Positions 16,601-38,277 of a DNA stretch of 39,053 nucleotides are shown here, one piece after another. The notes under the pieces were generated by a model that was given only the letters and a program-made list of their open reading frames with translations, made no database searches and was not told the DNA's origin. The translations under genes and the position numbers were made by a program. The stretch is from an uncultured Opitutia bacterium (lineage in GTDB: Bacteria > Verrucomicrobiota > Verrucomicrobiia > Opitutales > Opitutaceae): the NCBI GenBank assembly GCA_903896015.1, contig CAITWF010000074.1, positions 1-39,053 on the forward strand, given 5' to 3'. Every line of letters begins with the position of its first letter. Positions within the stretch are counted from its first letter, which is position 1.

Positions 16601-17798
16601 CACCGATTGCCTCGCTGCGCGAGGCGCGGCCTTCGAGAAACGGGTAGCGGTCCGGGTCGAAGAGGTGGCCGGCACGGGCGGGCATCTTGATTTCGGAGTA
16701 TTCGCAGCCCCCGTGAATCATGCGGAAGAGCGCGAGCAACTGCGGCCACGCACCGAACCGATGGTCCATCGTGTCCGGATAATGCTCGGCATCGTTGCGC
16801 AGCCGCTCGAACAGACCGCGCACGGAGTAGTGCCTAACGTAAAGTCCGCTCAGGGGCAACAGCCCGCGGTCCTCTGCGAACAGCGTGAAGACGAGCCGAA
16901 GCAACACCGTGACCAGACCGCCATAAATACTGTGTGGGTCTTTCGTCGCGAGTTCCCGGAGGAGCGCGCCCTTGACCCGTCCATCTGCTGCCTCGAATCC
17001 GCGCAGCAGTTCATAGAGCGCGTGGAGAACTTGCTCGGCAAGCACCTCGGAGACGCTGGCCTGGTAATCGCGACTGCGCTGAAGCAAGCCCGGCAGCCGC
17101 GCATCGCTCGGTGCCGTGAACAGCGTCCACGAGTTGAGGAGGAGATGAAACGCACCGAGGATCAGGCGACCCGAAACCTCGGACATCGGACCAACCGAGA
17201 ACTTCAATGAGCCGGAATTTTCTTTCGGCGGAGCGTAGACCAGTCGGAATTCCGTGCCGTTGGTGAGCAGTCCGATGGTCACACCGCTCTCGCGCAGCAG
17301 GCGCTCGAACTTCTTGGCCGGGGATGCAGGCCAGCCGCGTTCGCCACCGGTGGCGGGCCGGTCGAGATCGACTTTGGACGAATGCGTCTGGACGAGTAAG
17401 AGCCACGGTGACGTCCCCTCCTTGGCATTGGGGTTGGTCACGGCGTAGCTGGGCCGGAGGGTCTCCTGAAATTCTGGCAACGCGACTGACAGGGCGTCGG
17501 GCAATGGTCGGGACGGATCCCATCCGACAATCTGGTCAGCCTGCCACTCGAGAAATTCGGTGAGGAATCGCGGTATGTCAGGCACGCCGGCGACGGTGTC
17601 AGCCGTGTCGCCGTCGGTAAGCGGCAGGTCTGTGACGTGTTCAGCGAAGCGCCGCTGAAGGTTTCCCAACTGCGCCCGGTCAATGACGACTTGAGCATCC
17701 ACCAAGGCCGGCGCCGAGACAACGAGCCCCTCCGGCTGGACATAACCCAGCCACGCGAGGTGGTCAGCGAGCACGGGATCTTTGGGAATGAAGACCAT
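13614..17798 (-). CDS. drmMI: DrmMI, class 1 DISARM adenine-specific DNA methyltransferase
   Basis: A 1394-residue protein if started at ATG 17798 (MVFIPKDPVLADHLAWLG), two bases after the drmD stop; a GTG at 17819 would add seven residues and overlap drmD. Motif I is CDVAVGSAAFL near 586 and the catalytic motif IV is VGNPPYAGHY near 830, the NPPY tetrad of N6-adenine methyltransferases. Size and position between the SNF2 helicase and the drm core fit DrmMI, which methylates host DNA to mark it as self. The part from about 14.3 to 15.3 kb, after NPPY, has markedly lower GC (row 14521-14580 is 29/60) than both sides (rows 14101-14160 and 15661-15720 are 45/60 and 40/60). This is where target recognition would be expected. 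PglX of BREX is a distant look-alike, but no other BREX gene is present. Confidence 0.92.
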   Translation of the reverse strand: MVFIPKDPVLADHLAWLGYVQPEGLVVSAPALVDAQVVIDRAQLGNLQRRFAEHVTDLPLTDGDTADTVAGVPDIPRFLTEFLEWQADQIVGWDPSRPLPDALSVALPEFQETLRPSYAVTNPNAKEGTSPWLLLVQTHSSKVDLDRPATGGERGWPASPAKKFERLLRESGVTIGLLTNGTEFRLVYAPPKENSGSLKFSVGPMSEVSGRLILGAFHLLLNSWTLFTAPSDARLPGLLQRSRDYQASVSEVLAEQVLHALYELLRGFEAADGRVKGALLRELATKDPHSIYGGLVTVLLRLVFTLFAEDRGLLPLSGLYVRHYSVRGLFERLRNDAEHYPDTMDHRFGAWPQLLALFRMIHGGCEYSEIKMPARAGHLFDPDRYPFLEGRASRSEAIGALPLVSDGTLHRILEKLCILQGERVSYRTLDVEEIGSVYQTIMGFGVETAAGTAIALKGKRKNGGVPASPVISLEQLLAIPAKDRAGWLKENADTELTGEADKRLKTAATVDDLLVALGKRMDINATPAPVARGGLVLQPGDERRRSGSHYTPRSFTEPIVRKTLEPILKRFGEQPTPVQVLELKICDVAVGSAAFLVETCRQLADVLVRSWRVHGGRPALPADETEELLAMRTIAQRCLYGVDRNPMAVDLAKLSLWLATLAKDHPFTFLDHSIRSGDSLVGLTTKQVAAFTWGPTAGVQRLLGQDRLEKRIAAAIAYRRDILEAGDLLLPSLKTQKLQLADEALDEIRFVGDLAIAAFFGAGKDKARRELRDDLLQRYAATASEITGRLELKKIQVALRGGQSPVTPFHWEIEFPEVFDRENPGFDGIVGNPPYAGHYTLSSGNHTFYSEFLHWVYPESGGKCDLVAYFFRRAFAGLRTGGVLGLLATKTIAQGDTRQSGLTFICRSDGFIFDVVSRVPWPGQAQVFVTSVCLQKGVRPKIPLLDGKAVGRISAYLKEFPIDESPAQLAGGRGFTSYQGCVLRGDGFLFEDGNSGASPLSTRDELLRKEPRYSQVIRRIIGVEEFYDGWSVPRYAIYFSNWDSETVSKWPAALEILQQKVFGYRGNLTAKSAKGQAQEKWWQFNYPSAELHSEFLRIGSLFATAKTSATFAFVKVTGDVILSQSLIGFTTDRWAAFTTMQSRVHEFWARFFSSSLKNDPRYTPSECFDTFPFPTEFERNAVLAAAGTEYYEFRETLMKDLWLGLTEIYNHFHSPDDEALARLEARYRKRSATSDWRTAEAVPADRSPLTHYATPAAALAGVQRLRTLHAAMDAAVLTAYDWSDLLPKCTCEFLLDYEDDEAEESTGRQKKKPWRYRWPDEVRDEVLARLLKLNAERAEQERLAGSNVSAKASLRNSSTGAKRGRKPKSESTGVIGAQPELLPPAQGDFFESAN

Positions 17799-17800
17799 GG

Positions 17801-20800
17801 TCAACCGGTGACGGGCCACAGGTAGGCGAGCCCGATAGGTTCGAGCCGGAACGATTTAGTCCGGTAAAATTCGGCGATGCGTTGGGGTTCGCGCGTAAGG
17901 TCGCCATCGACGTTTTCGAGCCACCGCTGCCAGTGGCGACGATCAGCAGAGAGCTGCTTCTTTTCCTCGTCGCTGAAACCGAGGAGCAACTGTTCGTGGC
18001 CCGTGCTCTCGTATTTGGCGAGCACGCGCCGACGCTGGTCTTGCAACGTGGCCCGCAGCGCCTCGGATTCGATGCGTCCTCGCTCAGCGAGCATTTTCTC
18101 CGCGTCAACCTGCATGGCATGGCCGCGCTGCTCCAAATGCGGAAGCAGCTCCCGAATATCCTGCGCCATGCTGTCCTTCAGACGGCGGGTTGCGGTGGAA
18201 GGCACGGCCCGATCCTTGCCAGTCAACTTGAGAGAGTCCTGAAGGATGGCGATGGTGCGCGACTCGGCATCGCGCGCATACGGAGAGAGCGGGGCCTTGC
18301 GGGTGGCTGGATCGATCCAGCGCGCCGTAACCGTGATCAACTCTTCGTGCAGACGTGCTGCACCCGAACCGTAGAGAGAAAGTCTTCCCAGTAGCACGAC
18401 GCGAGGAATGGCGTCGTCGGATTGCGCGAGGCACGCCCGGGAGAGGTCGTGATAGACGAAACCCTGCGAGAGAAAGCGACCGAGCAGACGCTGGACGACC
18501 CGGTGCGACAGGTGAAGCTGGACGGTGTCCCCGTCGAATCCCAAAGGAGGAGAAAATACAACTGGCCGAAGCGGTGCTTCGCGGCGCCACTCAAACAGCG
18601 TCTGGTCGCGAGTTGGCGGAGGACGGAGGGTGTCGAGCGTCGCGGCCCATCGGGGATCGCCGCCATGGCGGGCCTGAAGGTTCGGAAAAACATAACGTGT
18701 GGGCTCACCTGGCGCGGAGGGGGTCTCCTTCAGCGGCTCCGCATTCAACATGTTGAGCGAGCAGCCGAGGGCGTCTCGAAGTTGAACTTCATCGAGGCCG
18801 ATCCAGTTGCGGGCGTCCTCGATCCGTTTCCCCAGACTCTCGATTTCAGAACGCAGGCGACTCTGGCGGGTGCGAGCGGCATCATCCAATTCCGCATCGC
18901 GGGCGGCCCGTTTTTCAGGGTCGTCCTCCAGCGCCTCAATTTCTGCGGCCGCGGCTTCGGCGTCGGCACGACGGATGCCGTTCCGCAGGCGCTTCTCGAC
19001 GACTTCAGAAAGACTGCCGAGTTCGAGTCGGATCGTTTCCGTTTTCCGGACGAGCGCGCGAAGAACGCGGTCCTCGGGGCGCTGGGTGTAGACAAAGTAA
19101 TGGCAAAACACCTTGTCGCTCGGCTGAAGCTTGCGGTCGATGCGGCCATTGCGCTGTTCGAGGCGTGACGGGTTCCAGGGGAGATCGAAATGAAAGAGGT
19201 GCCAGCAATGCGCCTGCAGGTTGAGGCCCTCGCGAGCGGCGTCTGTGGCGATCAGGATGCGGAGGGGGTTGCGCGCGGGTGGCTCATTGAACGCGCGCTT
19301 GAGCATTTCCCTTTTGTCGGGAGGAGTCGGGCCGTGAAAGACTTCGAGTCGCGCATCGGCGCGCTCGGTGCCGGCGAAGGCCGCCTCGAGCTGACTGCGC
19401 AGGTAGCGGGCGGTGTCCTCGTATTCGGTGAAGATGATTAACCGGAGCGGTGTCCACGTCGCCCCGGGCTGCGGGCTCTTGTTTCCTTCTGTCCGAATCC
19501 CGCTGCAGGCGTTTTGCCGCAACCAGTCGAGCAACCAAGTGATGCGCGCATCGGGACGGAAGCGGTGCTGCTCGGCGACCCGCGCCATGTCTCCGAGAAG
19601 CTTACGCTCCGTCGCTACATCGGCGGACGTAGACTTCCCACCGGCCAAAAGAGAGGCCTGCTCCATGGCCGCTGCTGCCTCGGCCTCCTGTTGATCGGGT
19701 GGCAGCAGGCCGCGCTCGTCATCGTTGTCGTAACCGGCGGAGAGCTGAGCGATGTCAGCCGTGGAGGTGGCGCTGCGCACGGCACCTTCGCCGGCCCAGA
19801 CTTTTTCCATCGCACGCCGATGGGAGGCGAGGGTTCGCTGGAACGCCTCGACCGAAGAGAAAAGGCGCTGCTGCAGGGTCGAGAGGATGAGGGCGCCTTG
19901 AGTTTGTTCTCGTTTGCTCGCCCCGTCGAAACGCTGCCGGCGAATGGTGCTGTAGGCATCCAGCCATTCGGCGAGCCGAAGTTCTGGCGCATCAGGCGAG
20001 AGATTTTTCAGATCGATCTGAACGACTTCACGGATCGGGAAGCCTCCGGCGACAACACGGACATCTTCCTTCAGGCGACGAACCATGACAGCTTCCAAAT
20101 CGCTCTTCCGGACGGCGACGCCGCGCATGAAGCGTTTGTCGTCGAGCAACTCGAGCAAAGCGCTGAAACTGTTGGAGTGCCCGTTGTGCGGAGTGGCCGA
20201 CAAGAAAAGGCGATGCTCGAAGCGTGGGGCGATGTCGCGAATCGCCTTCGTGATCTTTGAATCGATGGCGTATTTGGCGCCGCTGGATGGCGCGGCGTGG
20301 TGCGCCTCGTCGAGAATCAGCAGGCTTCCCGGACGGAGGTTGTCCAGCCACACGCGCAGGGGCGACGTGTAGGCCTCGTCGATCAACAGACGCTGCGACA
20401 CAAGGAAACGTGGGAACGTGGTCCACGGGTTGACGGCATAGCCGCGCTCGCGACGGATCCGGTCAACGTAGTCGCGGTCAAAAATCTCGAAGCGCAGACC
20501 AAAGCGAGCATCGAGTTCGTCCTGCCATTGCTTGAGCATCGACGGCGGGCACGCGACCACGACGTCACGAACGCGGCGGCGGAGGAGGAGTTCCGTGGCA
20601 ATCAGACCGGCCTCAATCGTTTTGCCGAGACCTACGTCGTCGGCTATGAAAAGATTTACCCGAGGAAGCTGAAGCGCCTTGCGCAGGGGCTCCAATTGAT
20701 AGGCGTCAATTCGGATGCCGGCCCGAAACGGCGCCTGAAAAAGTTTTGGGTCCGTGGCGGTGATGCAGTGCCAGCGGAGGGTGTTGAAGTAGGCCGCAAA

Positions 20801-21043
20801 CTGCCGCGGATCATCGAAACCCTTTTCGCCGATCTTTGCCCAAGCCTCGGCATCGATGACTAGGCCATCGAGTTCGGCCTCCCATATCACTTCAACAATT
20901 TCACCTTGGGCGTCGTCCTCGACACACGCGAGCCGCAGCCAAGTGCCGGATTGCGATGGCGCGGAGTCTTCCACAAGCCAATGGCGAGCTCGGACTCGGA
21001 CGATCTGGCCTGCCTTGGGGGCTGGAGGGGCGGACACAATCAT
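17801..21043 (-). CDS. drmD: DrmD, SNF2-type helicase of class 1 DISARM
   Basis: This 1080-residue protein carries motif I ADDVGLGKTIEAGL near 133, motif II LLILDEAHHAAP near 245, motif III FLSATPHNGH near 279, motif V ATDAAREGLNLQ near 600 and motif VI LEQRNGRIDR near 630, a complete SNF2/RapA-like ATPase. A charged helical region follows at about 690-760. DrmD distinguishes class 1 from class 2 DISARM, which has DrmE instead. The ATG at 21043 is the first drm start in this operon. Upstream lie about 220 noncoding bases with two inverted repeats, then the metallophosphoesterase gene on the same strand. Confidence 0.93.
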   Translation of the reverse strand: MIVSAPPAPKAGQIVRVRARHWLVEDSAPSQSGTWLRLACVEDDAQGEIVEVIWEAELDGLVIDAEAWAKIGEKGFDDPRQFAAYFNTLRWHCITATDPKLFQAPFRAGIRIDAYQLEPLRKALQLPRVNLFIADDVGLGKTIEAGLIATELLLRRRVRDVVVACPPSMLKQWQDELDARFGLRFEIFDRDYVDRIRRERGYAVNPWTTFPRFLVSQRLLIDEAYTSPLRVWLDNLRPGSLLILDEAHHAAPSSGAKYAIDSKITKAIRDIAPRFEHRLFLSATPHNGHSNSFSALLELLDDKRFMRGVAVRKSDLEAVMVRRLKEDVRVVAGGFPIREVVQIDLKNLSPDAPELRLAEWLDAYSTIRRQRFDGASKREQTQGALILSTLQQRLFSSVEAFQRTLASHRRAMEKVWAGEGAVRSATSTADIAQLSAGYDNDDERGLLPPDQQEAEAAAAMEQASLLAGGKSTSADVATERKLLGDMARVAEQHRFRPDARITWLLDWLRQNACSGIRTEGNKSPQPGATWTPLRLIIFTEYEDTARYLRSQLEAAFAGTERADARLEVFHGPTPPDKREMLKRAFNEPPARNPLRILIATDAAREGLNLQAHCWHLFHFDLPWNPSRLEQRNGRIDRKLQPSDKVFCHYFVYTQRPEDRVLRALVRKTETIRLELGSLSEVVEKRLRNGIRRADAEAAAAEIEALEDDPEKRAARDAELDDAARTRQSRLRSEIESLGKRIEDARNWIGLDEVQLRDALGCSLNMLNAEPLKETPSAPGEPTRYVFPNLQARHGGDPRWAATLDTLRPPPTRDQTLFEWRREAPLRPVVFSPPLGFDGDTVQLHLSHRVVQRLLGRFLSQGFVYHDLSRACLAQSDDAIPRVVLLGRLSLYGSGAARLHEELITVTARWIDPATRKAPLSPYARDAESRTIAILQDSLKLTGKDRAVPSTATRRLKDSMAQDIRELLPHLEQRGHAMQVDAEKMLAERGRIESEALRATLQDQRRRVLAKYESTGHEQLLLGFSDEEKKQLSADRRHWQRWLENVDGDLTREPQRIAEFYRTKSFRLEPIGLAYLWPVTG

Positions 21044-21267: not shown

Positions 21268-21954
21268 TTAGAAAGCGACCGGGCCGACCACTCCCTCCGC
21301 GGTCACGAACTCGGCGCGGCGGGCAACGGTGTCGATAACGACGTGCCGAGGAACCCTAGCCATCAAATCACACCCCGGATTGAAACACGCGACGTCGCCA
21401 ACGTAGGCGATCCATTCGTCGGGTTCGTGAACGTGACCCGACAAGACGATGCCGCCGGTTCCCTGCAGACTCTCCGCCACGAGACGCGTCGAATAATCTC
21501 CACCGGCATCCCACCCCCGGCGGTTGGCGACGTCCGCCCCCTCCGGCGGCGCATGAGCAAGCAAGACGGTGGGTCCCGGCGGGGGCTCAATCTCTCCGAC
21601 CCACGGTCGGCACACGACATTGAAGCCGGCCACCGCGACCACGTCGCCGTCGATGGCAATGCCCGGTCGCCGCGCGCGCTGCAGCCAGCCCGCCTCGTCA
21701 TTCGGCTTATCGGGGCACCAATCGTGATTGCCGCTAACAGCGAAGACGCGCGTCCGCCCCCCAACATGCAGCTTCTCAAACCAATCGACCACCCATTCCA
21801 CTTGTCGCGGCAGCGCAACTGCCGCGTTGGGATGAGCGTCCAGAAAATCGCCCGCCAGGCAAACGGCGTCGAACCGATCCTCCGCGACGACCCGTGCTAC
21901 AAACTCAAAAAACGTCCGTCGAAAATGAAGGTCGCCAAAGGTGATCAGTTGCAT
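21268..21954 (-). CDS. Calcineurin-like metallophosphoesterase
   Basis: The 228-residue protein has every signature of the metallophosphoesterase fold in order: GDLH at 7-10, GDFLD at 35-39, GNHDW at 75-79, AHAPP at 133-137 and GHVHEPDEW at 173-181. These residues hold a two-metal centre for phosphoester hydrolysis. The substrate is not evident; relatives act on nucleotides, nucleic acids or phosphoproteins. There is no signal peptide, so it is cytoplasmic. It lies upstream of drmD in the same direction but is separated by 224 bases and two inverted repeats, so membership in the drm operon is uncertain. It is divergent from the ankyrin gene at 22052. Confidence 0.88.
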   Translation of the reverse strand: MQLITFGDLHFRRTFFEFVARVVAEDRFDAVCLAGDFLDAHPNAAVALPRQVEWVVDWFEKLHVGGRTRVFAVSGNHDWCPDKPNDEAGWLQRARRPGIAIDGDVVAVAGFNVVCRPWVGEIEPPPGPTVLLAHAPPEGADVANRRGWDAGGDYSTRLVAESLQGTGGIVLSGHVHEPDEWIAYVGDVACFNPGCDLMARVPRHVVIDTVARRAEFVTAEGVVGPVAF

Positions 21955-22051: not shown

Positions 22052-22783
22052 ATGGTAACGCGCTTGAGGAATAGCCAGTCAGGCGAACAGTGGGACCCCG
22101 ACCTCATTCCTTGGCCGGTGCGGGCTGCGTGCGACGAAGTGCTCGCGAACTTTCGGCGTCGCGCGCCGGGAACGGTGTCGCTCGTCCAGATTCATCGTTG
22201 GCATGTTGCCGCCACGGCTCTCGGGAAAAAGGCAGCGGGGATCATCGCCAATTGGGCCTACGAGAAATTCGAGCGGGCGGCGAAGGCTCGCGACTCGGCG
22301 ACTTTCAGGATGCTCATCGAACAGGAAATGGAGCCGATTGCCGTGAGCTCAAAATATCGATTCCGCCCGCTGCACGCGGCGGTGCAAACGGGGTTTCGCA
22401 AAGGCGTGAGTCTCCTGCTCGACGCGGGCGCCAACATCGACGCCGAAAACATCCACCGCTGGCGACCGCTGCACTTGGCGTTGTCCAATCGGCGGAAAAC
22501 CATGGCGGTATACCTGCTGAAGCGCGGCGCTGACCTTCGTCCGAACGGCGGCACGTTTATGGTCGATTCAGCCATAGCTGATATGCCGGAGGCTGATATC
22601 GAATTCCTGCAACGGTTTATCTGGCGCGATCCGGCGGCGCCCTCCTTGTGGGAACAGTTGGCGACCAAACGGCGTCTCGCCGAAGTTTACGGCTGGATCG
22701 GAATCACCATCAAAATTCAACAGTTGGAATCCGCGGAAGCCAAACGCGCGCCGAACGACGGCCGACGTTTGAGCCCTCCCTGA
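22052..22783 (+). CDS. Ankyrin-repeat protein
   Basis: This 243-residue protein has a helical N-terminal domain (about 1-95, WDPDLIPWPVRAACDEVLAN) and then about two to three ankyrin repeats, such as RFRPLHAAVQTGFRKGVSLL and HRWRPLHLALSNRRKTMAVY, each followed by LLDAGANI or LLKRGADL. It appears to be the full-length relative of the truncated gene at 275-793. Ankyrin repeats mediate protein contacts and no enzyme domain is present. The ATG at 22052 lies 97 bases from the divergent metallophosphoesterase start, so the two probably have separate promoters. A role in the surrounding defence region is unknown. Confidence 0.82.
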   Translation: MVTRLRNSQSGEQWDPDLIPWPVRAACDEVLANFRRRAPGTVSLVQIHRWHVAATALGKKAAGIIANWAYEKFERAAKARDSATFRMLIEQEMEPIAVSSKYRFRPLHAAVQTGFRKGVSLLLDAGANIDAENIHRWRPLHLALSNRRKTMAVYLLKRGADLRPNGGTFMVDSAIADMPEADIEFLQRFIWRDPAAPSLWEQLATKRRLAEVYGWIGITIKIQQLESAEAKRAPNDGRRLSPP

Positions 22784-22904: not shown

Positions 22905-24383
22905 ATGTCGCCTCTCCCCTCAGGCCAACACTCCGACGCCATCGAGTCCCAACTCGTATGCAGTTCCTGCGTTGGTGAAAAACATCTACAGCACGAGATG
23001 GAGATAACTGGAGCGGATGCTACATGCCACTATTGTGGAGAGCCGGGGAAATGCTGGACAGTCGAACAACTTACAGATCGGGTCGATAAGGCTTTCGAGC
23101 AACATTACGAGCAAACCGCCGCGAATCCAGAGGGCGTCGAGGCAACGATGGCCAATGATCCGGAAAGCAGCTACGAATGGGAGCGTTCGGGCCAACAGAG
23201 CGCCGACGCCATTGCGGAAGCGGCAGGAGTCTCAGAGGAGATTGCCGAGGATGTCAGAGAAGTGCTAAGTGATCGGCACTTCGACCGCTCGTCGGCGGAA
23301 GTTGGTGACGAGCAGGCGTTCGATGCCGATACGCACTACGCGAAAAAGGAGATCACGGGTGCCCCATACCAGGAGGACTGGAATCAGTTTGAGCGGACCG
23401 TGCGCGAAGAATCCCGCTACTTTGCCCCGGTCGTTCGCTCGACCCTCGACCGGATTTTCGACGGAGTCGCCGGACACAAGACCATTTCAGGACACACGGT
23501 GGTCGCTGATGCCGGCCCGAGCACAAAAATCGACCACCTTTTCAGGGCGCGAGTCTTTCAATCTGAAAGAGCCGTGCTCGAAGCTATTGAACGGCCAGAC
23601 CTTCGTCTCGGCCCGCCACCACCGAACCGTGCCACGGCAGGAAGGATGAACCCTGCCGGCATTTCGGTTTTCTACGGCGCTAGATCAACTAAAGTGGCCA
23701 CGGCAGAAGTTCGGCCGCCGGTCGGGAGCAGAGTCGTATCGGGAAAGTTTGAGATCACGCGATCTTTGAAACTGCTCAACCTGGATGCTCTCGTTGATGT
23801 CTATGTTAAGGGGAGCATCTTCGACCCCAACCATGCGGGACGCATGGAGCGCGCGGCATTTCTTGGCACCTTGGGCTTTCTACTTTGCCGCGCGGTCATG
23901 CCAGAGGAGGAAACGTCCGGTTATCTGGTAACCCAAGTTGTCGCGGACTACCTGGCCAACGTTGTAAAGCTCGACGGCGTGATCTTTCGCTCAGTCCAAA
24001 CCGGCACGAAGAGTGCAAATGTGGTGCTTTTCCATCATGCCTCTCGCGTGGAAAAACTTGATCTCCCAGAGGGAAGCAAGATCAGCGCGGTGGGGGGCAT
24101 GATGGGACCGGATGAGGACGATGCGGACTATTACGTCGGCGAGGAGGTTCCTGAAATCGTTCCACCCAAGAGGGAGGGGCACGGAGTGAAGATATCAGGG
24201 ATGGGAGTATTTGAGTTTTGGGGCAGCAGCGAGCCTGTAGACCCACGACCCGTCACCCTCAGACTTGAAACGAAGAGCGTGCAGGTAACGCATATCGCGA
24301 AAGTCGAATACAGTGGGCGCTCATTTGAGGTTCATCGCTATCGCACAACTAAGCCGGCCGCGGGCGAGAAGCCGCCGTTCTGA
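22905..24383 (+). CDS. RES-domain protein with N-terminal zinc ribbon
   Basis: This protein has 492 residues. Cysteines C19, C22, C41, C44 and C50 form a zinc-ribbon-like start. Residues about 55-190 are acidic and helical and fit the N-terminal domain described for long RES proteins. The RES domain runs from about 208 to 380: HLFRARVF (R214 or R216), VFYGARSTKVATAEVRP (Y257, E268), a YLVTQVVADYL helix and VIFRSVQTG (S363). RES domains of RES-Xre toxin-antitoxin pairs degrade NAD+ and resemble ADP-ribosyltransferases. No Xre-type antitoxin is adjacent, and the domain organisation differs from the small RES toxins. An abortive-infection effector or NAD-using enzyme is plausible but inferred. 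It converges on the gene at 24433. Confidence 0.82.
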   Translation: MSPLPSGQHSDAIESQLVCSSCVGEKHLQHEMEITGADATCHYCGEPGKCWTVEQLTDRVDKAFEQHYEQTAANPEGVEATMANDPESSYEWERSGQQSADAIAEAAGVSEEIAEDVREVLSDRHFDRSSAEVGDEQAFDADTHYAKKEITGAPYQEDWNQFERTVREESRYFAPVVRSTLDRIFDGVAGHKTISGHTVVADAGPSTKIDHLFRARVFQSERAVLEAIERPDLRLGPPPPNRATAGRMNPAGISVFYGARSTKVATAEVRPPVGSRVVSGKFEITRSLKLLNLDALVDVYVKGSIFDPNHAGRMERAAFLGTLGFLLCRAVMPEEETSGYLVTQVVADYLANVVKLDGVIFRSVQTGTKSANVVLFHHASRVEKLDLPEGSKISAVGGMMGPDEDDADYYVGEEVPEIVPPKREGHGVKISGMGVFEFWGSSEPVDPRPVTLRLETKSVQVTHIAKVEYSGRSFEVHRYRTTKPAAGEKPPF

Positions 24384-25929: not shown

Positions 25930-27135
25930 ATGAAGCCGTCCCTGGGGTGGACCATGTTGTCCCGCGCCGATATGCGACAAGCCGAACGCGCTTTGGAGAG
26001 CGGTGATCGTGGCACGCGTGACGAAATCGGCTTCCTCCTCATTCATCAGGCATTTGCGGACCGTTTTTTCCCCGGCACGTCGGTGCTCCACACTCGGTTG
26101 CGCTACGCTCTCTTCATTCCGTGGCTCTATCAGCGTGCAGCAGATTCGCCGCGCAGGGGACGCGATCTGGAGGCCCGGATTCGCGACTTACTGATCGAGC
26201 TGGTTCGGCGACTGAAATTGATCGGCAAGGAACCTCGCGGAGTGATCGGCGGCGACAAGCCCGACGAACTGACGGCGCAGCCGTCCGACGTATCCTACTG
26301 GGGTGCGCTCCGCACTTGGGGAATCGTCCTTGAGGATGTAACATCTAGGACGGAAGCACGGCGCCGACTTCAGGCGCAGCGGTCCCCCGGGCAGCGCGAT
26401 GAAAATGGCGACCGCATCGATGACGGCAGCATCGAAGTATTCCGCAGCCTGGTGGCGCCGCCCGACGATTGGGATAAATCCGACGGAGCGTTGAACTTCC
26501 CCATGCGCCCACGGGAACGAGAATTTCTCCGCGGAAGGTTGACCCAGCTTTTGAGGTCCGACGGAAAGCCCACGCTTCTCGCTCGCCTCATGGAAGCGCG
26601 CCGCTGCATTCACAATGATGCCTTTGCGTTGCCAAAGGCGCTAGATGCCGTGGCCGATGAGGACGACAAGCGGGCACTCGCGGTGGCACGAGATGCCGCA
26701 TCGTTGACCGCAATTGGTCGCGCCGTTTACGGCGCACTGGTCGAACACCTGCTCGCCGCCGACGGCATCAATATCGAGCCCACCTTCCGCAACCTGCTAG
26801 AAGAACATTTGGTCGATTTCGGTGCAGAGGCGGGTCGCTGCGACATCGTCGAACTCCAAGCGTTCATGCCGACCATGCCAAAGTATGTGCGTGAGGTCCT
26901 TCAGCAAACCAAGGACTTCGCTCGTCTCGGCGACCCGTCGCAGTTCGCGGGGCTTCTCACCTGCTACCGCGAGTCCGAATGTCGGCGCAAAGGGCAGCGC
27001 GCCCGTTTGGCCAATACCCATCGGGCGGCGCTGCGTCGGCGAGACTGGGACCCGCTTCAGCACAACACCGAACGACTCCACTACCGCTGGGGCGTCGTCT
27101 ACGACATGCTTAACGACCTCTTCGGCGAATCATGA
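25930..27135 (+). CDS. DUF6361 family protein, first gene of a DUF6361-PLD-helicase operon
   Basis: The 401-residue protein has the N-terminal pattern I associate with DUF6361: LGW near the start, RGTRDEIGFLLIHQAFADRF, FFPGTSVLHTRLRYALFIPW and SYWGALRTWG near 120. The rest is helical and charged, without a catalytic motif I can name. Family function is not known to me. The stop codon overlaps the start of the PLD-like gene (ATGA), so the two are translationally coupled. Co-occurrence with a PLD nuclease and a helicase suggests a structural, sensing or regulatory partner in a nucleic-acid-targeting system; that is inference. The ATG at 25930 is supported by the family-like start. Confidence 0.82.
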   Translation: MKPSLGWTMLSRADMRQAERALESGDRGTRDEIGFLLIHQAFADRFFPGTSVLHTRLRYALFIPWLYQRAADSPRRGRDLEARIRDLLIELVRRLKLIGKEPRGVIGGDKPDELTAQPSDVSYWGALRTWGIVLEDVTSRTEARRRLQAQRSPGQRDENGDRIDDGSIEVFRSLVAPPDDWDKSDGALNFPMRPREREFLRGRLTQLLRSDGKPTLLARLMEARRCIHNDAFALPKALDAVADEDDKRALAVARDAASLTAIGRAVYGALVEHLLAADGINIEPTFRNLLEEHLVDFGAEAGRCDIVELQAFMPTMPKYVREVLQQTKDFARLGDPSQFAGLLTCYRESECRRKGQRARLANTHRAALRRRDWDPLQHNTERLHYRWGVVYDMLNDLFGES

Positions 27136-28955
27136 AACGCGAAGCCTGGCCGATATTTTCTATCGTCGAAGTCCTGCGGCCGCCGGAGGGTTGGCGAACG
27201 GACCACGCGATCATCGCCACCTACTCCGCCGACCTCACCGTTATTGTCACGGCGCTTTTCGCGATGGCCGGTTGCGACCTCGACAATCGCCGAACCGGCA
27301 GCCGCATTGAACTGATTCGCGCGGTCGACTTGTTACGAGATCGGTTTCGCGTAGTGGTCCAAAAGAATCGGATCGCGGTGCCTCGAGCGTCCTCGCAGCA
27401 GACCATTCTCAAGTTGCTCGATCAGTTTGTATCCATCGTCGACGTCGACGAGGCGAAGCTGTCTTGGCACCCGAAAGTCATGCTTATCCGCTACACCCGG
27501 AAAGGCGACAGCTCCGATTTTCAATGGCGCCTCTGGCTGGGAAGCCGAAACCTCACCTCTGCTTCGAATTGGGACGCCGGCATCACGCTGAACAGTCGCG
27601 CCGATGGCGGCCGGAGCATTGATGGCCTTGCCACTCTTGCCAGGGAATTGGCCGTCCGTGCGGCTTTACCAAAGTTGAAAGCGGCCGCGCTGGCGACGGA
27701 GCTCGAAGGGCAGCGGTGGGAGTGTCCGCCCGGGTGCGATGCCGCAGTAATCCGCCTGCTGGGTCCCGGTCTACCGTCGATCAATCCTTGTGCGACCGAA
27801 GCGGTAGATAAGGTCATGGCATTTAGTCCATTTTTGGACTTGTCGACGGTTCGAGCGCTGGCGGCTTCGGGCGGCAGTCGAGCCAAGCGAACACTCATAT
27901 CAACCCGGCATGCTCTTCAAACCCTGCATCAGCAAGATGCGGGTGTTTTTTCAGGATTCGAGAATGTCAGCTGTTTCGGAGACCCAGAGCGACCCGCCGA
28001 AGGCACTGGGCTAGTAAGCGAGGAGGAGACCAGCTCAACGGAAACCCCCGACGCGGAGGATACCGCGATTGCTGGACTGCATGCTAAGTTGTTTTTCACC
28101 GAGAAAGGAGCCCACCGAACTCTCTGGATCGGCAGCGCCAATGCCACGGAGCGAGCGTGGAATGGACGCAACTACGAGGCTGTGGCGCGATTGACTGTGC
28201 CACGGGAAGTGTCCGCTTCACTGGAAGAATTCGCGCAACGTGCAGAACGTTTTTCCCCTGGCCCACCCCTGCCCGACCCGGACCAAAATGAAGCATTGCT
28301 CCATTTTGCCCGGCAATCGCTGTCAAACTCGTGGCACCTAAATCAAAAGGTATCGGGGTCCATGATTGATATTTCATGCGATGAGCCTCCCGCGACCGGC
28401 GATCCAGCCGTCAAAATCGAAGTCGCCGCGCTGGGCGGGCAGTGGACGCTTTGGCCAGCTGGAGCGCGCGAGGTGACCATTTCTCCTGATCCCCAAAATC
28501 CCGAGCGATCCGATTTCGTTCAGGTGCGGCTGGTCTGCGGCGACAAGAGTTGCGCATGGATCCAGATTGCTCCGTGCGACCCGCGCCCCGATGCCAAGCG
28601 GAACCGCGCGCTTGTGGCGCATTACTTGGATGCGTCTTCATTCATTCAGTGGCTGCGAAGTGTTCTGGCAGACGAAACCGACCACGAGGGCGGTGGCGAC
28701 TGGGATGGTCCTGATCGCGAACCCGTCGGACGTCCGGCTGGAAACCCAGCCACTCCCGCCGACATTCTAAGTGTGGAGGAAATTCTGCGTGCCTGGACTC
28801 GCAATCCCACGGTTTTCAATGAAGTCGATGCCAAGGTCCTGGACTACATTGGGGATATGCTGAACGTCGCAATTCAGCGCGGCCGCGGCGCTGACGAGAA
28901 ATCGTTGCGGTCATTTCAGACCCTATGGGAACAGATTGCGAGGGAGCTGAGGTGA
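27132..28955 (+). CDS. PLD-like nuclease with two HxK motifs
   Basis: The 607-residue protein has two phospholipase-D-type half sites. The first is SWHPKVMLI (H113, K115) followed by LGSRNLT (G137-S138, N140). The second is LHAKLFF (H317, K319) followed by IGSANAT (G334-S335, N337). Both lack the usual Asp six residues after the Lys, as in several PLD nucleases. A monomer with two half sites can form one active centre. The region from about 400 to 607 is unassigned. The gene overlaps DUF6361 upstream (ATGA) and the helicase downstream (GTGA). A nuclease acting on DNA loaded by the helicase is the natural inference. Confidence 0.85.
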   Translation: MKREAWPIFSIVEVLRPPEGWRTDHAIIATYSADLTVIVTALFAMAGCDLDNRRTGSRIELIRAVDLLRDRFRVVVQKNRIAVPRASSQQTILKLLDQFVSIVDVDEAKLSWHPKVMLIRYTRKGDSSDFQWRLWLGSRNLTSASNWDAGITLNSRADGGRSIDGLATLARELAVRAALPKLKAAALATELEGQRWECPPGCDAAVIRLLGPGLPSINPCATEAVDKVMAFSPFLDLSTVRALAASGGSRAKRTLISTRHALQTLHQQDAGVFSGFENVSCFGDPERPAEGTGLVSEEETSSTETPDAEDTAIAGLHAKLFFTEKGAHRTLWIGSANATERAWNGRNYEAVARLTVPREVSASLEEFAQRAERFSPGPPLPDPDQNEALLHFARQSLSNSWHLNQKVSGSMIDISCDEPPATGDPAVKIEVAALGGQWTLWPAGAREVTISPDPQNPERSDFVQVRLVCGDKSCAWIQIAPCDPRPDAKRNRALVAHYLDASSFIQWLRSVLADETDHEGGGDWDGPDREPVGRPAGNPATPADILSVEEILRAWTRNPTVFNEVDAKVLDYIGDMLNVAIQRGRGADEKSLRSFQTLWEQIARELR

Positions 28956-31900
28956 GCACGCGGCAAATCAGCCCGCCCAAGAATTTTCAGCAGGCGACCG
29001 TTCGCGCTGCCTTGAAAACACTCAGGGGTGAAGGTGCGCGACGATTTCTCGTCGCCGATGAAGTCGGCCTGGGAAAAACCGTCGTGGCGCGCACCGTCCT
29101 GCAACGACTCGTTGAAGGAAAGCGTAAGCCCCTCGTCGTTTTCTATGTGGCGAGCAACCTCAACATCGCGCACCAGAATCGAAACAAGTTGATCGAAATC
29201 CTCCCCGAGGGGGAGCAGAAGTCCGCCGTCGCTAAATCCGACCGACTGACACTCGCCGCCAATCCGGCCATGCGGCCGCGGCACGAACGCGTTCACCTCT
29301 ACACTCTCACTCCGGACACCTCGGCGCCGCAGTATCGTCGACGCGCCGGGATGGGGCGTTTGGAGGAACGCGCCCTCATCTATCGATTGCTCACGACGTG
29401 CTTTCCCAGCGTGGCGAAACCGTTTTTCCGAGATTTCTGCCGCGGAGGGGGTCGGAGCCAAAAACGCTGGTTAGAAGCGCTAAAAGCCCAAAGCCAGACG
29501 CGGCACGAACGCGCCTTGCGGGACGAATTCCTGAAAGCGATCCGGGCCGATGCGAGCCTTCTGATCGAGGTCGACATTCCGCAATCACTCCTCCGGATCG
29601 CATCGCAACCAGTCCCCTCCCGTGCCTTGGGCCGCCTTCGATCCGCGCTGGGACTCGCGGTCTTTCGCGTGCTCCAGCCGGATTTGATCATCTACGACGA
29701 ATTTCAGAAGTTTCGGGATCTTCTCATCGACCGGAAGGAGCCAAGCCACGATCCCTTGATTGCCTCATTTCGCGGCGAAGGGCCCAAGCCAGCGGCCGCC
29801 TTGCTGCTGCTTTCTGCAACGCCGTTTCGCCTCTATTCATCACGGTTAGATGACGCCGATGGATTCTCTCACCATCATGAGTTTTTCGAGCTGATCCGAT
29901 TCCTCTCCGACTCTGAATCCGGGCCGAAGAAGATCGAATCGAAGCTGCTGGAGTTTGGCGAACTCATGCAAAAGCGCGGCGAGGCGCCCGATCTCGCGCG
30001 CCTGGGAGCCTTGCGCTACGAAATCCAAAAGCTGTTGGCACCGATATTAAGCCGAACTGAACGAACACATTTCGAAGAAGGGAAAAGGCCGGCCATTCAC
30101 CCGAAGTCAGAAGTGCGCTCTGAAGACATCCAGCTCTTCAAACACTGGGTAGAGCGGCTACGCGAACGGACGTCCCAAAAACCTGGACGAGTTGATATGA
30201 CGAGCTTCGCCGTGCCGTTCTGGCTGTCGGTTCCGTTGCCCATCCAAATGCTGGGTCGGAACTACATGGCGTGGCGCAAGGCGAATAGGAGCAATCGGCG
30301 GCGGAACGAGCCGATCCTCCGCCAGAAGCACCGCGACCGGCTCAGAGCTCCAAAAATTTGGCCGCACCCTCAATTTCGAGAACTGAAAAAATTGGTCGGG
30401 CCTTCTCGACTGGTGCTACCGTGGGTTGCGCCGTCCGTGCCATGGTGGGACTTGAATGGGGCCTGGAACCAGCCGGACGCGGGCGGCGGAAAACTTCTGG
30501 TATTTTCACGATTCAAGGCAGTCCCCCAGGCGCTCGCGAGCATGTTGAGTTACGACCTGGAGTCGTCGTATGCGGCGCGACTTCGCCACAACTATCGTCG
30601 AGCCGGTCTGGCTCAACCGCTCCAGCTTCAGCCTAAGCGCGTGGCGCTCCTTGCACTCTTCTTTCCATCACCGACACTGATTGCCTATACGGATCCCCTG
30701 CGGGACAAGCCGGCCAGTTTGATTGCAGCGCGGGCATCGATGCGCCGCCAAGTGGGAGCGTTGCTACGAAAGCTGGGCGTCGCCATCAAGCGACGCGGTC
30801 AATCGCGTCCCCTCTGGAAACTGATCGGTGCACTGGAGGTTCAACGGTGTTTGATGCTGGGGGACGACGGACTCCCCAGTTGGGAAGAGATGAAACGCCA
30901 CTGGCGCAGAGTTGGTGCAGGACAAAAGGAGATCATGACCGGTGTCCTGAACCAATGGACCGTTGCTGCCTACGACTCGGTGACATCCGTCAGCCAGCGA
31001 GAGGCGGCAACACTGGCCGAATTCGCGTTGGCGGGACCAGGTGTCGCGCTCGGCCGAGCATTATTTCGATTCGATCCAAGTTGCGTGAAGAGCGACCGAT
31101 TCTCCGAGATCCTCGATCTTAGCTGGAATGGATTTCGGTCTTACCTCAATCGGTCGATTTTCCACGCGGCACTGACCCGTCGTGGTCAAACCTACACAAA
31201 GGCCGTTCTTTCCGCAGTAGTGGACGGCAATCTTGAATCCGTCATCGACGAACACCTGTGGGTCGCCGGACGCCTCGATGCCGACGCCGTCACACGATTT
31301 CCGCAGCATCTCAAAAACGTGTTTACGCTGCGCGAAGGGCGCCACCTGGTGCATGAACCCGGTGGAAAACCTGCTCAATTTCAACTGCGGTGCCATGCGG
31401 CAATGCCGTTCGGCGGAGCCAAAGTCGTCGACAAATCTGGCGCCGACGAGGGGAAGCTTCGAACGGACGAGTTGAGGCGCGCGTTCAACACACCGTTCTG
31501 GCCGCATGTCCTCGTCACGACATCGCTCGGGCAAGAGGGACTGGATTTCCACGTTTGGTGCCGGCAACTCTTGCATTGGGACTTGTGCCACAGCCCCCTC
31601 GATCTTGAGCAGCGCGAAGGACGGATCCAGCGATTTGGTGGTCTGTCCGTGCGGACCGCGTTGGCGAACGAACTCGGAAGTGATGCCCGCAAGGGTGCAA
31701 CCGGAAGCGTCTGGGGTTCGCTGGCCAATCTTGCCGAGCGAAAATATGACCACGATCCGTCCGGGCTCAGCCCGTGGTGGTCGTGCACCAACGAACGGAT
31801 CGACAATTTTTTCGTCGTGATGCCTCAATCCCGAGAAATCGCCCGCTTTGATCGGCTAAGTCATCAGCGCTGGCTCTATCGTTTGGCGCTCGGCCAGCCG

Positions 31901-32020
31901 CATCAGGAGGACTTTATCGAAAGCGTCTCAAGCCTGGCGCAAGATGACAGAAAGCAACATGTGCTGTGCCTCTCCGCGTGGAAGAATGGCGTCGATAAGA
32001 AAAGTGCCCCGCCCTCGTGA
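28952..32020 (+). CDS. Large SNF2-like superfamily II helicase, third gene of the block
   Basis: The preferred start is GTG 28952, overlapping the PLD-gene stop (GTGA) and preceded by an AGGGAG ribosome-binding sequence; it gives 1022 residues (an ATG at 28925 would add nine). Motif I is VADEVGLGKTVVAR at about 34-47, motif II is LIIYDEFQKF near 244, motif III is LLLSATPFRL near 285, motif IV-like KLLVFSRFKA lies near 515, motif V is TTSLGQEGLDFH near 855 and motif VI is LEQREGRIQRFGG near 885. A segment of about 330 residues separates motifs IV and V, far longer than in a minimal SNF2 core. It resembles DrmD in its ATPase motifs but has a different architecture. It ends the operon; no clear terminator follows. 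Confidence 0.88.
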   Translation: MSTRQISPPKNFQQATVRAALKTLRGEGARRFLVADEVGLGKTVVARTVLQRLVEGKRKPLVVFYVASNLNIAHQNRNKLIEILPEGEQKSAVAKSDRLTLAANPAMRPRHERVHLYTLTPDTSAPQYRRRAGMGRLEERALIYRLLTTCFPSVAKPFFRDFCRGGGRSQKRWLEALKAQSQTRHERALRDEFLKAIRADASLLIEVDIPQSLLRIASQPVPSRALGRLRSALGLAVFRVLQPDLIIYDEFQKFRDLLIDRKEPSHDPLIASFRGEGPKPAAALLLLSATPFRLYSSRLDDADGFSHHHEFFELIRFLSDSESGPKKIESKLLEFGELMQKRGEAPDLARLGALRYEIQKLLAPILSRTERTHFEEGKRPAIHPKSEVRSEDIQLFKHWVERLRERTSQKPGRVDMTSFAVPFWLSVPLPIQMLGRNYMAWRKANRSNRRRNEPILRQKHRDRLRAPKIWPHPQFRELKKLVGPSRLVLPWVAPSVPWWDLNGAWNQPDAGGGKLLVFSRFKAVPQALASMLSYDLESSYAARLRHNYRRAGLAQPLQLQPKRVALLALFFPSPTLIAYTDPLRDKPASLIAARASMRRQVGALLRKLGVAIKRRGQSRPLWKLIGALEVQRCLMLGDDGLPSWEEMKRHWRRVGAGQKEIMTGVLNQWTVAAYDSVTSVSQREAATLAEFALAGPGVALGRALFRFDPSCVKSDRFSEILDLSWNGFRSYLNRSIFHAALTRRGQTYTKAVLSAVVDGNLESVIDEHLWVAGRLDADAVTRFPQHLKNVFTLREGRHLVHEPGGKPAQFQLRCHAAMPFGGAKVVDKSGADEGKLRTDELRRAFNTPFWPHVLVTTSLGQEGLDFHVWCRQLLHWDLCHSPLDLEQREGRIQRFGGLSVRTALANELGSDARKGATGSVWGSLANLAERKYDHDPSGLSPWWSCTNERIDNFFVVMPQSREIARFDRLSHQRWLYRLALGQPHQEDFIESVSSLAQDDRKQHVLCLSAWKNGVDKKSAPPS

Positions 32021-33046: not shown

Positions 33047-33699
33047 GATGGCCCAGAGCTGCCCACCACGCGGTCCTCCGTGCGCGCTTTTGCCTGCACA
33101 AGGAAGGTCCCGCACGGTTCACCGGAGCCCAAAATCTTAATCGGTCGGCCCACCGGACCGAGGACATGCAGCGCAGCATAGTCATCGTCAGACAATTGCA
33201 GGTTAAACCAAAGCTGGCGCCGCAGGAAGGCCGACACGGCGCCATGGACGCTCGGCAGAACCACTGGCGGCTCCTCCTCCGAGTGAACAAACCACTCGCT
33301 CAATCCAGGCCAGCCGTCCTGCAGCAACGTCTCACGGTTTAGAATCGTGCAGCGCAGGTAGTGGGCGCAGGCCGTGTCAAGGGCGCCGATGGTCAGGATA
33401 TCGACCGTTGGTTTGCCGTCCACCGGCACAACGAGATTCCGCTTTTCGAACAAACGCCATGCACCGAGGGCCGACAGGTTCAGGAGTCGTCGACTATCAA
33501 AGGCACGTCGGAGGTGCCCCGCAAAATCGTCCGCCACGCCACAGATTGTCGGACGGGACTCGTTCTCGAAGCGGTGCGATGCTTTGAGCGCAGAGCTCAC
33601 CCGCTCGCGCAGCCCTGCCTCGCTGACAGCCATGATCCTCGCGTTGTAGCTTTGAGGATCGAGGATCCATACATAGATCGGAGGGGGCAGGATTTTCAT
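33043..33699 (-). CDS. Hypothetical protein, 218 residues, coupled to the recombinase
   Basis: The ATG at 33699 (MKILPPPIYVWILDPQSYNA) shares one base with the recombinase stop (TGATG); a TTG at 33702 would add one residue. The protein is soluble and mixed alpha/beta, with GALDTACAHYLRCTILNRE in the middle and LHVLGPVGRPIKILGSGE near the end. I do not recognise a family. Coupling to an integrase suggests a role in integration, excision or its control, but nothing in the sequence proves this. Confidence 0.7.
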   Translation of the reverse strand: MKILPPPIYVWILDPQSYNARIMAVSEAGLRERVSSALKASHRFENESRPTICGVADDFAGHLRRAFDSRRLLNLSALGAWRLFEKRNLVVPVDGKPTVDILTIGALDTACAHYLRCTILNRETLLQDGWPGLSEWFVHSEEEPPVVLPSVHGAVSAFLRRQLWFNLQLSDDDYAALHVLGPVGRPIKILGSGEPCGTFLVQAKARTEDRVVGSSGPS

Positions 33700-34412
33700 C
33701 AAGACGGTGTTAAGCCAACGGAGGACATGCCACTGTCAGAGGCTGCGCTCTCGGCGGGAAATTTCTCCCCGCCCGTGGTCTCATCACGGACATGCCGGCG
33801 CGACAGGTTCAGGACCGCTTGCGTCGCCGCCTCGCCATCGGTCTCGAGAAAAAGGTAGCCGGCGGTCGTAAGTGCGCTCGCATGTGAAACACTGCGGCGC
33901 GCGATCTCCAGGTTGGTCGCCTCAAAAATTCGGCGCACAAAACGCCGGCGAAGCGAGTGACCGGCCCAGGTTCGCGCAGGATCACAGCCCGCCTGCAGAA
34001 AGATTTTACGGATGATTCGCCAGGCTTGGACGCGGGAGAGATGTTTCCTGCCATCACGTCCGGGAAAGAGCGGTGCCTGCGGCCAAAGCGGACCCTGCCG
34101 TTCGCGGTCCTCGAGGAAGTGCGTGAGATATTCCCGCGCGTGATCGTTCAGCGGGATTTCCCGGCTCCGGACTGAGCGGGCGCGGACCGCGCCAACTTTC
34201 CCGGCCTTCAAAAATCGGCGACTGATTCGCAGGACCGAAACGCACGCGCCATTCCGCCAGACCGCCCCCGTCGGCAGGCGACACAGTTCGGTCAAGCGCA
34301 GTCCCGTTTCGAAGCCGAGGATGACAATGACCTGCTCGGAGAGCGGAAAGAACTTCAACGCGGCGATGACGCGTTGCTCGTCGAGTTCGGTCGGACAGGA
34401 AGCGCGGAGCAT
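33699..34412 (-). CDS. Compact tyrosine recombinase (integrase)
   Basis: The start at ATG 34412 (MLRASCPTELDEQ) gives 237 residues; the frame stays open to an ATG at 34562, but those 50 extra residues are low in complexity and unlike protein. Catalytic residues are visible: Arg in FETGLRLTEL, HxxR in GHSLRRRFVRR, the second His in VSHASALTT, and the nucleophile Tyr in AGYLFLE. The N-terminal SAM-like DNA-binding domain normal in phage integrases is short or absent. The enzyme would cut and rejoin DNA at attachment sites by a 3'-phosphotyrosine intermediate. It heads a coupled operon with two unknown genes and lies about 3.3 kb from the tRNA-Leu fragments, a likely but unproven target. Confidence 0.85.
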   Translation of the reverse strand: MLRASCPTELDEQRVIAALKFFPLSEQVIVILGFETGLRLTELCRLPTGAVWRNGACVSVLRISRRFLKAGKVGAVRARSVRSREIPLNDHAREYLTHFLEDRERQGPLWPQAPLFPGRDGRKHLSRVQAWRIIRKIFLQAGCDPARTWAGHSLRRRFVRRIFEATNLEIARRSVSHASALTTAGYLFLETDGEAATQAVLNLSRRHVRDETTGGEKFPAESAASDSGMSSVGLTPS

Positions 34413-34562
34413 GGGGAAAAGCTGCAAATCAGCGGAAGCGGCGCCCGCGGCCGCGCGCACGGTAACGGCGATAAGAAATTTCCCGGGGGCGATCCGGCGG
34501 CTCGAATCCCCGGAGGGTCGGAGTCCGTGATTTTCGCCCGCGCCGGAACGCCGCCTGCCCAA

Positions 34563-37869: not shown

Positions 37870-38277
37870 TCAAACGCGTCTTGGCAGGAGTTTTCGAAGC
37901 CGCTGCGTAGCCTCGCTGCGATCGATTGTACTCGATGCAACCGCCAACGTAAGTTCTTCCCATTCTGGACCGTCAGCCTTTGGTTTAATCCCGTTCAGAC
38001 GGAGAAACACGATGCACGCGCCCAGCGCCGCTCTCTTGTTACCGTCCACAAAAGGATGGTTTTTGCAGAGGTAAAACAAATAGGCCGCGGCCACTTCTGC
38101 AATGTCCCGGTAGATCGACTGCCCGCCGAAGCTCGCCTGCGGTGCCGCCACCGCTGACTCCAACAGCGCCAACTCCCGCATCCCGTCCGAGCCGCCAAAT
38201 CTCGTGATTACCTCAGCGTGAATTTCCCGCACGATTTCTACGGTCAGGTGCAGACAACTGTCTGGCGTGGCTTTCAT
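37870..38277 (-). CDS. doc: Doc-type toxin (Fic/death-on-curing family)
   Basis: The 135-residue protein carries the Doc/Fic catalytic motif HPFVDGNKR at 74-82, preceded by the helix ALLESAVAAPQASFGG and YRDIAEVAAAYLFYLCKNHP typical of Doc. Doc of phage P1 phosphorylates elongation factor EF-Tu and stops translation. The ATG at 38277 overlaps the antitoxin stop (ATGA), the expected antitoxin-first order. The pair lies between two tRNA-Leu 3' fragments, which suggests that it stabilises the inserted DNA. Family assignment is firm; the target here is by analogy. Confidence 0.93.
   Translation of the reverse strand: MKATPDSCLHLTVEIVREIHAEVITRFGGSDGMRELALLESAVAAPQASFGGQSIYRDIAEVAAAYLFYLCKNHPFVDGNKRAALGACIVFLRLNGIKPKADGPEWEELTLAVASSTIDRSEATQRLRKLLPRRV

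What the first reader, a model, noticed from the sequence alone, without database searches (positions are those of the whole stretch)
25930..32020. Tightly coupled DUF6361 + two-motif PLD nuclease + large SNF2-like helicase: candidate undescribed defence system
Three genes are joined by ATGA and GTGA overlaps next to a DISARM locus. The PLD-like protein has two HxK/GSxN half sites (113-140 and 317-337). The helicase has DEVGLGKT, DEFQ and QREGRIQR motifs with a long insert of about 330 residues between motifs IV and V. I know of no named antiphage system with this exact set. Helicase plus nuclease plus an unassigned partner is the usual shape of a DNA-targeting defence module; defensive function is inference.
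Basis: partly seen in the sequence, partly recalled or inferred. Interest (0 to 1): 0.82.

Follow-up and report, generated by a model that had tools for sequence, protein, structure and literature searches.

The report
Divergent Azaca anti-phage system beside DISARM
The three linked genes are real, but they are a distant member of Azaca, an already named bacterial anti-phage defence system whose mechanism is still unsolved, and not a new system.

Summary
In detail: DUF6361, two-site PLD and Swi2/Snf2-type genes joined by 4-base overlaps, 4.9 kb from DISARM. The claim that the set is unnamed does not. All three proteins match the PADLOC models ZacA, ZacB and ZacC (283, 364, 809 bits) over nearly their whole length; these are the genes of Azaca. 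Of 80 genome contigs fetched by ZacB, ZacA is next upstream in 75 and ZacC next downstream in 77; the 8 gaps lie at contig ends. Both PLD half-sites and the checked helicase motifs are kept nearly without exception. The modest news: this copy is only 20-29% identical to those relatives and groups with Azaca from four proteobacterial plasmids (about 40% in Methylocystis), in a genome inferred to be Verrucomicrobiota. ZacC models as a Swi2/Snf2 motor; ZacB's second half-site matches the type IV enzyme SauUSI; ZacA is all helix, fold unassigned. Best mechanism, inferred: an ATP-driven DNA-tracking nuclease with ZacA as recognition or control subunit. Low interest as a discovery; Azaca's trigger remains open.

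The parts
25930..27135 (+). zacA: DUF6361 protein, 401 aa, nearly all-helical model
   Evidence: PADLOC ZacA 1.3e-84, residues 1-398; PF19888 3.2e-15; AlphaFold2 pLDDT 79.3, pTM 0.79
27132..28955 (+). zacB: two-half-site PLD-family protein, 607 aa, ATGA overlap with zacA
   Evidence: PADLOC ZacB 5.2e-109, residues 10-604; PLDc_2 2e-8; junction read
27468..27551 (+). zacB first PLD half-site, HPK (113-115) to SRN (138-140)
   Evidence: H113, K115, R139 and N140 in 76 of 76 aligned ZacB; position 138 is S in 57 and T in 19
28080..28142 (+). zacB second PLD half-site, HAK (317-319) to GSAN (334-337)
   Evidence: H317 74 of 76, K319 75, G334 75, S335 75, N337 75; profile aligns with SauUSI 7clg 111-165
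28952..32020 (+). zacC: Swi2/Snf2-type SF2 ATPase; GTG start at 28952 preferred (GTGA overlap); upstream ATG at 28925 possible
   Evidence: PADLOC ZacC 2.4e-243; junction statistics; fold comparison
29057..29080 (+). zacC motif I, DEVGLGKT (Walker A)
   Evidence: G48, G50, K51 and T52 in 65 of 65
29696..29707 (+). zacC motif II, DEFQ
   Evidence: 65 of 65
30509..31519 (+). zacC stretch between motifs IV and V (residues 529-865), mostly helical in the model
   Evidence: spacing 337 aa, range 337-467 in 65; model secondary structure
31610..31633 (+). zacC motif VI, QREGRIQR
   Evidence: Q896, R897, G899, R900 and R903 in 65 of 65

Best explanation
This is a complete, divergent Azaca (ZacABC) anti-phage operon. 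Shown by sequence: identity of the three genes, kept catalytic motifs, gene order shared with relatives. Inferred mechanism: ZacC is a double-stranded DNA motor of the Swi2/Snf2 type. ZacB is a PLD nuclease whose two half-sites in one chain make a single composite active site, where SauUSI and BfiI use a homodimer. ZacA is a non-enzymatic recognition or control subunit that licenses the motor-nuclease on invading DNA. ATP-driven tracking along the DNA then delivers the nuclease, as in ATP-dependent restriction by SauUSI, but with the functions split over three proteins and no modification enzyme in the operon. Confidence is about 0.97 for Azaca membership and about 0.5 for this mechanism; the figure given is for the two together.
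For: PADLOC ZacA/B/C hits over nearly the whole length. PMC12278908 lists ZacC as the helicase of Azaca and PMC10952713 lists a PLD-like domain in Azaca (passages). Gene order A-B-C at 80 loci apart from contig ends. In 387 phylum genomes DUF6361 occurs in 7, each time beside a ZacB match, 6 of them complete. Kept catalytic motifs. ZacC model matches Swi2/Snf2 ATPases: 7enn Z 14.1, 416 aligned, 4.0 A; type ISP LlaBIII 4xqk Z 13.8, 366 aligned, 4.8 A; SauUSI 7clg Z 13.0, 318 aligned, 5.8 A; ZorD 8qy7 Z 13.0, 430 aligned, 5.3 A. The ZacB profile finds one PDB sequence at E 0.01, SauUSI, 2.8e-5, at the second half-site. SauUSI is a translocating PLD nuclease with an SF2 ATPase (PMC7913695, abstract and passages).
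Against: No experiment here. The ZacC rows shown lie within 2 Z units (14.3 to 12.4) and are mostly eukaryotic remodellers, so they say 'Swi2/Snf2 motor', not 'restriction enzyme'. The ZacB match to SauUSI covers one half-site of about 55 residues. ZacB was not folded. Nothing shows that A, B and C form one complex, that ZacB cuts DNA, or what ZacA does. G391 has ZacA with a ZacB cut short and no ZacC found in the 16 kb read.
Confidence: 0.7

Rival explanations
1. Same system, other mode: a genome-integrity sensor that degrades all DNA in the infected cell (abortive), as reported for Hachiman, with ZacC as sensor helicase and ZacB as released effector.
For: No methyltransferase among the three genes to mark self DNA; Hachiman is a nuclease-helicase pair of this kind (PMC12278908, passages).
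Against: Among the solved structures, ZacC's model matches Swi2/Snf2 motors, restriction motors included; no Hachiman protein was compared here.
Confidence: 0.3
2. An undescribed three-gene system, distinct from Azaca.
For: 20-29% identity to the other Azaca proteins aligned; well separated group in the ZacC tree; Pfam DUF6361 matches only residues 27-133.
Against: Near-full-length matches of all three proteins to ZacA/B/C, same order, same catalytic residues, three-gene relatives at 35-42% on plasmids.
Confidence: 0.03
3. A decayed or silent passenger copy of Azaca.
For: Rare in the phylum sample (8 of 387 genomes with a ZacB match at 1e-20); no promoter-like site on the coding strand (the consensus used need not suit this phylum).
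Against: All three frames open and catalytic residues kept.
Confidence: 0.07

Closest known systems
Azaca (ZacABC; Millman et al. 2022, cited for Azaca by PMC10952713 and PMC12926258; the paper itself is not held)
   Same: three genes, order, DUF6361/PLD/helicase make-up, near-full-length model matches
   Different: 20-29% identity to the aligned relatives; groups with four proteobacterial plasmid copies
Azaca of Methylocystis parvus plasmid pMpar-1 (NZ_CP092969)
   Same: same three genes with 4-base overlaps; ZacC 40% by tblastn (42%), ZacA 38%
   Different: on an alphaproteobacterial plasmid, next to an integrase and toxin-antitoxin genes; no DISARM gene annotated in the 9 kb on either side, in a gene table that PLSDB keeps incomplete
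SauUSI (type IV, PDB 7clg)
   Same: PLD nuclease plus SF2 translocase; its HxK...GSxN half-site aligns with ZacB's second half-site
   Different: single chain, nuclease site made by two protomers, own methyl-C recognition domain (PMC7913695)
NgoAVII and CglI (PLD plus SF2 ATPase restriction enzymes)
   Same: PLD nuclease and SF2 ATPase in separate subunits, R2H2 (as told in PMC7913695, passage)
   Different: the PLD subunit carries a B3 recognition domain and the system has modification (restriction-modification, same passage); not compared here by sequence
PDC-M27 (PADLOC candidate)
   Same: PDC-M27C is the next best model for ZacC; a ZacB-like/PDC-M27C-like pair exists in G480
   Different: scores far lower here (71 against 809 bits); no ZacA found near the G480 pair
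Hachiman (HamAB)
   Same: nuclease with a partner helicase
   Different: two genes; not compared here by sequence
DISARM (DrmC PLD, DrmD Snf2)
   Same: PLD and Snf2 proteins; the window's DrmC weakly hits the ZacB model and its DrmD the ZacC model
   Different: separate operon in the same window, minus strand

Membership tests
Azaca | ZacA (DUF6361) over its whole length | tested here: met
   283 bits, residues 1-398, model 1-391 of 396
Azaca | ZacB PLD protein over its whole length with both half-sites | tested here: met
   364 bits, residues 10-604, model 9-579 of 586; motifs
Azaca | ZacC helicase over its whole length | tested here: met
   809 bits, residues 13-1019, model 8-1017 of 1019
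Azaca | zacA-zacB-zacC adjacent, same strand, in that order | tested here: met
   same in relatives
Azaca | anti-phage activity | not testable with these tools
   activity of Azaca is from the literature as cited; not tested for this locus
SauUSI-type IV restriction enzyme | PLD and ATPase domains in a single chain | tested here: not met
   PLD and ATPase lie in separate proteins; only works-like is claimed
SauUSI-type IV restriction enzyme | methyl-C recognition domain | not tested
   no search for such a domain was made beyond Pfam, which names none in the three proteins
DISARM | DrmA and DrmB core within the operon | tested here: not met
   the three genes give Zac as best model; ZacC hits DrmD and DrmA models only weakly (49 and 36 bits); DISARM proper is the minus-strand cluster 4153-21043
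Hachiman | HamA and HamB genes | tested here: inconclusive
   no Ham model among the PADLOC matches listed for the three proteins (25 of 26 shown for ZacC); that the library holds Ham models is recalled

The most novel reading that the evidence does not exclude
The window's branch (with Methylocystis, Bradyrhizobium, Mesorhizobium and Janthinobacterium plasmid copies) is a distinct Azaca type with its own trigger, spread between phyla on mobile DNA, and it works together with the DISARM locus beside it.
Probability: 0.15. Interest if true: 0.4.

Novelty: new member of a known kind. Interest (0 to 1): 0.18.

Why it matters
It removes a false lead: the set is Azaca. It also gives material for the open question of how Azaca works: alignments with the residues kept in all three proteins, the prediction that ZacB is a one-chain composite PLD nuclease and ZacC a Swi2/Snf2 DNA motor, a nearly all-helical ZacA whose fold is unassigned, and a divergent branch for comparing triggers.

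Tried and rejected
Rejected: an unnamed system. Paper searches that led nowhere: 'zacABC' and 'DUF6361', 0 papers each; ZacA/ZacB/ZacC as words, 504 papers, the 20 listed unrelated by title, the rest not seen. 'Azaca' gives 28 papers, 27 listed, many unrelated; 12 also hold 'defense system'. I read passages with the word in PMC10952713, PMC12278908, PMC10482375, PMC12629846, PMC12926258 and PMC10121019; none of these passages gives a mechanism; the other six of the 12 were seen only in the listing. Passages of PMC12839542 (BREX-related systems) show that PLD (HKD) nucleases with Swi2/Snf2 helicases serve as effectors elsewhere; DUF6361 is not in that text.

The first genome scan, with the window's ZacB alone, found nothing; an alignment query succeeded. 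No Azaca found in viral contigs (two short patterns, so weak evidence of absence). ZacA: one PDB sequence at E 0.28, not credible; Foldseek best E 1.5; VIA-align best Z 5.2, 4.5 A, 115 aligned, a bacterial bestrophin, below what helical bundles give by chance according to the tool's note; so no fold is claimed, and absence is not shown. ZacC profile: no PDB sequence at E 1e-5. Promoter/terminator scan not above shuffles.

Coupling of Azaca to DISARM: homologues of two or more of the window's DISARM proteins lie in the fetched DNA of 4 of 80 loci (L037, L041, L080, L095); L018, L034, L072, L079 and L083 have only weaker hits to single proteins; no background rate was measured. The ZacC tree used 45 rows: the window, 6 plasmid rows, 3 phylum genomes and 35 of the 64 full-length ZacC; quick method, long branches and uneven letter make-up flagged by the program; two plasmid rows (Bradyrhizobium USDA 61, Halomarina) fell outside the window's group.

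Rows dropped before the residue counts: ZacA under 330 aa (69 of 75 kept), ZacB under 520 aa (75 of 80 kept), ZacC under 900 aa (64 of 77 kept), then the window added. In one search ZacA was counted at over 40 bits and ZacC at over 100; L081 and L097 look cut or frame-shifted but have all three.
Full report
What is there. Three genes on the + strand, 25930-27135, 27132-28955 and 28952-32020, form a tight operon. The junctions are ATGA and GTGA. An upstream ATG for the third gene (28925) exists, but 56 of 77 relatives carry ATGA or GTGA at the ZacB stop and two plasmid relatives are annotated with the short overlap, so 28952 is preferred. Residue numbers for ZacC below count from 28925.

Identity. 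PADLOC-DB 2.0.0 gives ZacA 283 bits (1.3e-84), ZacB 364 bits (5.2e-109) and ZacC 809 bits (2.4e-243), each over nearly the whole protein and model. Pfam gives DUF6361 for residues 27-133 of the first, PLDc_2 for the second, and a bare ResIII match for the third. NCBIfam has no family over its cut-off. Zac genes are Azaca: PMC12278908 lists 'Azaca (ZacC)' among defence helicases and PMC10952713's table lists a PLD-like domain in Azaca, citing Millman et al. 2022 (passages). PMC10482375 counts Azaca among systems of unknown mechanism (passage). The original paper is not held; that it tested Azaca against phages is recalled.

Conservation of the set. ZacB alignment A4 was used to scan genome contigs (84,980 species, by the tool's description): 398 relatives, of which the best 80 were kept and examined; the other 318 were not seen. 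In those 80, ZacA is next upstream in 75 and ZacC next downstream in 77; the 5 and 3 exceptions have the contig end within 50 bases. They span many bacterial phyla and archaea (Methanotrichaceae; record titles); plasmid copies include Halomarina, Cronobacter and rhizobia. In a sample of 387 genomes of the phylum, DUF6361 occurs in 7, each beside a ZacB match; 6 (own included) are complete ABC, the seventh, G391, has ZacA and a 110-aa ZacB fragment with 71 residues matched, with no ZacC found in the 16 kb read. An eighth ZacB match, G480, is a weaker PLD protein (95 bits) paired with a PDC-M27C-like helicase, without ZacA. So DUF6361 is, in this sample, an Azaca marker. In a sample of 286 genomes of the class, 3 have ZacB.

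Catalytic residues. Alignments hold the window plus rows of sufficient length: 76 ZacB, 65 ZacC, 70 ZacA. ZacB: H113, K115, R139, N140, W147, D148 and E349 in 76 of 76; H317 74, K319 75, S335 75, N337 75 of 76. ZacC: 26 of 27 positions checked in motifs I to VI and the Q motif are the same in 65 of 65; at 530 the window alone has F, the others W. Motif IV to V spacing is 337 in the window, 337-467 in all. ZacA: G107, Y123 and W124 in 70 of 70; D31 and E32 in 67, P48, G49, R56 and Y59 in 68, with 2 gaps; at position 9 the window has M where 64 have D. I recognise no classical catalytic signature in ZacA (recall, no test).

Structure. The ZacA model (pLDDT 79, pTM 0.79) is almost all helix and has no confident match in the PDB. 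The ZacC model (pLDDT 73, pTM 0.79) matches Swi2/Snf2 ATPases: Foldseek 9b1e 5.1e-6 and RapA 8spg 3.7e-5; by VIA-align ALC1 7enn Z 14.1 (4.0 A, 416 aligned), LlaBIII 4xqk Z 13.8 (4.8 A, 366), SauUSI 7clg Z 13.0 (5.8 A, 318), ZorD 8qy7 Z 13.0 (5.3 A, 430), RapA 6bog Z 12.5 (5.9 A, 424). These lie close together: they support the motor fold, not a particular system. ZacB was not folded. Its profile finds one PDB sequence, SauUSI, E 2.8e-5, with the HAK...GSxN half-site aligned.

Mechanism. SauUSI joins a PLD nuclease, an SF2 translocase and a recognition domain in one chain; its active site forms from the HxK motifs of two protomers (PMC7913695, abstract and passages). NgoAVII and CglI hold a PLD nuclease and an SF2 ATPase in separate subunits (same paper), so a split is not without precedent. 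Azaca distributes similar parts over three proteins, and ZacB carries two half-sites in one chain. I infer a DNA-tracking nuclease in which ZacA or the long ZacC insertion supplies recognition. How self DNA is spared is unknown: none of the three genes is a methyltransferase. A Hachiman-like abortive mode is the main rival (0.3).

Position in the family. The window proteins are 20-29% identical to the aligned relatives. Tblastn against plasmids gives ZacC 40% in Methylocystis parvus and ZacA 38-39% in Methylocystis and Mesorhizobium. In the ZacC tree the window joins four proteobacterial plasmid copies, 100% SH-aLRT, on a branch of 2.48 (root placed for drawing only); two other plasmid copies fall elsewhere. 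Transfer from or with proteobacteria is plausible, not shown. The window is a whole contig, C74 of 123.

Surroundings. DISARM genes run on the minus strand, 4153-21043, and a phage-integrase-family gene lies at 33699-34562. Four of 80 other Azaca loci also have DISARM genes in the DNA fetched; no background was measured, and many loci are cut short.

Verdict. A sound observation of a real defence operon; a known system; a divergent member. Interest 0.18.

Noticed in passing
window 4153-21043 (-): DISARM cluster DrmC, DrmB, DrmA, DrmMI, DrmD with an extra 1096-aa SF2 helicase (10320-13610) between DrmA and DrmMI that weakly hits type IV, PbeA and DpdF helicase models.
   Followed up: partly
window 2381-4120 (-): KAP-family NTPase matching PADLOC candidate PDC-S49 (4.9e-31), directly beyond DrmC.
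   Followed up: no
window 22905-24383 (+): HEPN/RES N-terminal domain joined to a RES domain, between DISARM and Azaca; a possible toxin or effector. No homologue found in the fetched Azaca loci at E 1e-10.
   Followed up: partly
window 119-793 (+) and 22052-22783 (+): Two ankyrin-repeat proteins, one on each side of DISARM; the second weakly hits PADLOC candidate PDC-M72A.
   Followed up: no
window 21268-21954 (-): Calcineurin-like phosphoesterase weakly matching PDC-S10, just upstream of DrmD.
   Followed up: no
window 33699-34562 (-) and 37870-38277 (-): Phage-integrase-family recombinase and a Fic/DOC protein downstream of Azaca, suggesting a mobile island.
   Followed up: no
L018:3670-8393 (-): A ZacB-like PLD protein paired with a PDC-M27C-like helicase, no ZacA found, about 2 kb from a DrmD-like gene (705 bits): perhaps a sister system of Azaca.
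   Followed up: partly
L019:4965-6507 (+): Full-length ZacA followed by a ZacB cut short, with no ZacC found in the 16 kb read: a broken or misassembled Azaca locus.
   Followed up: partly
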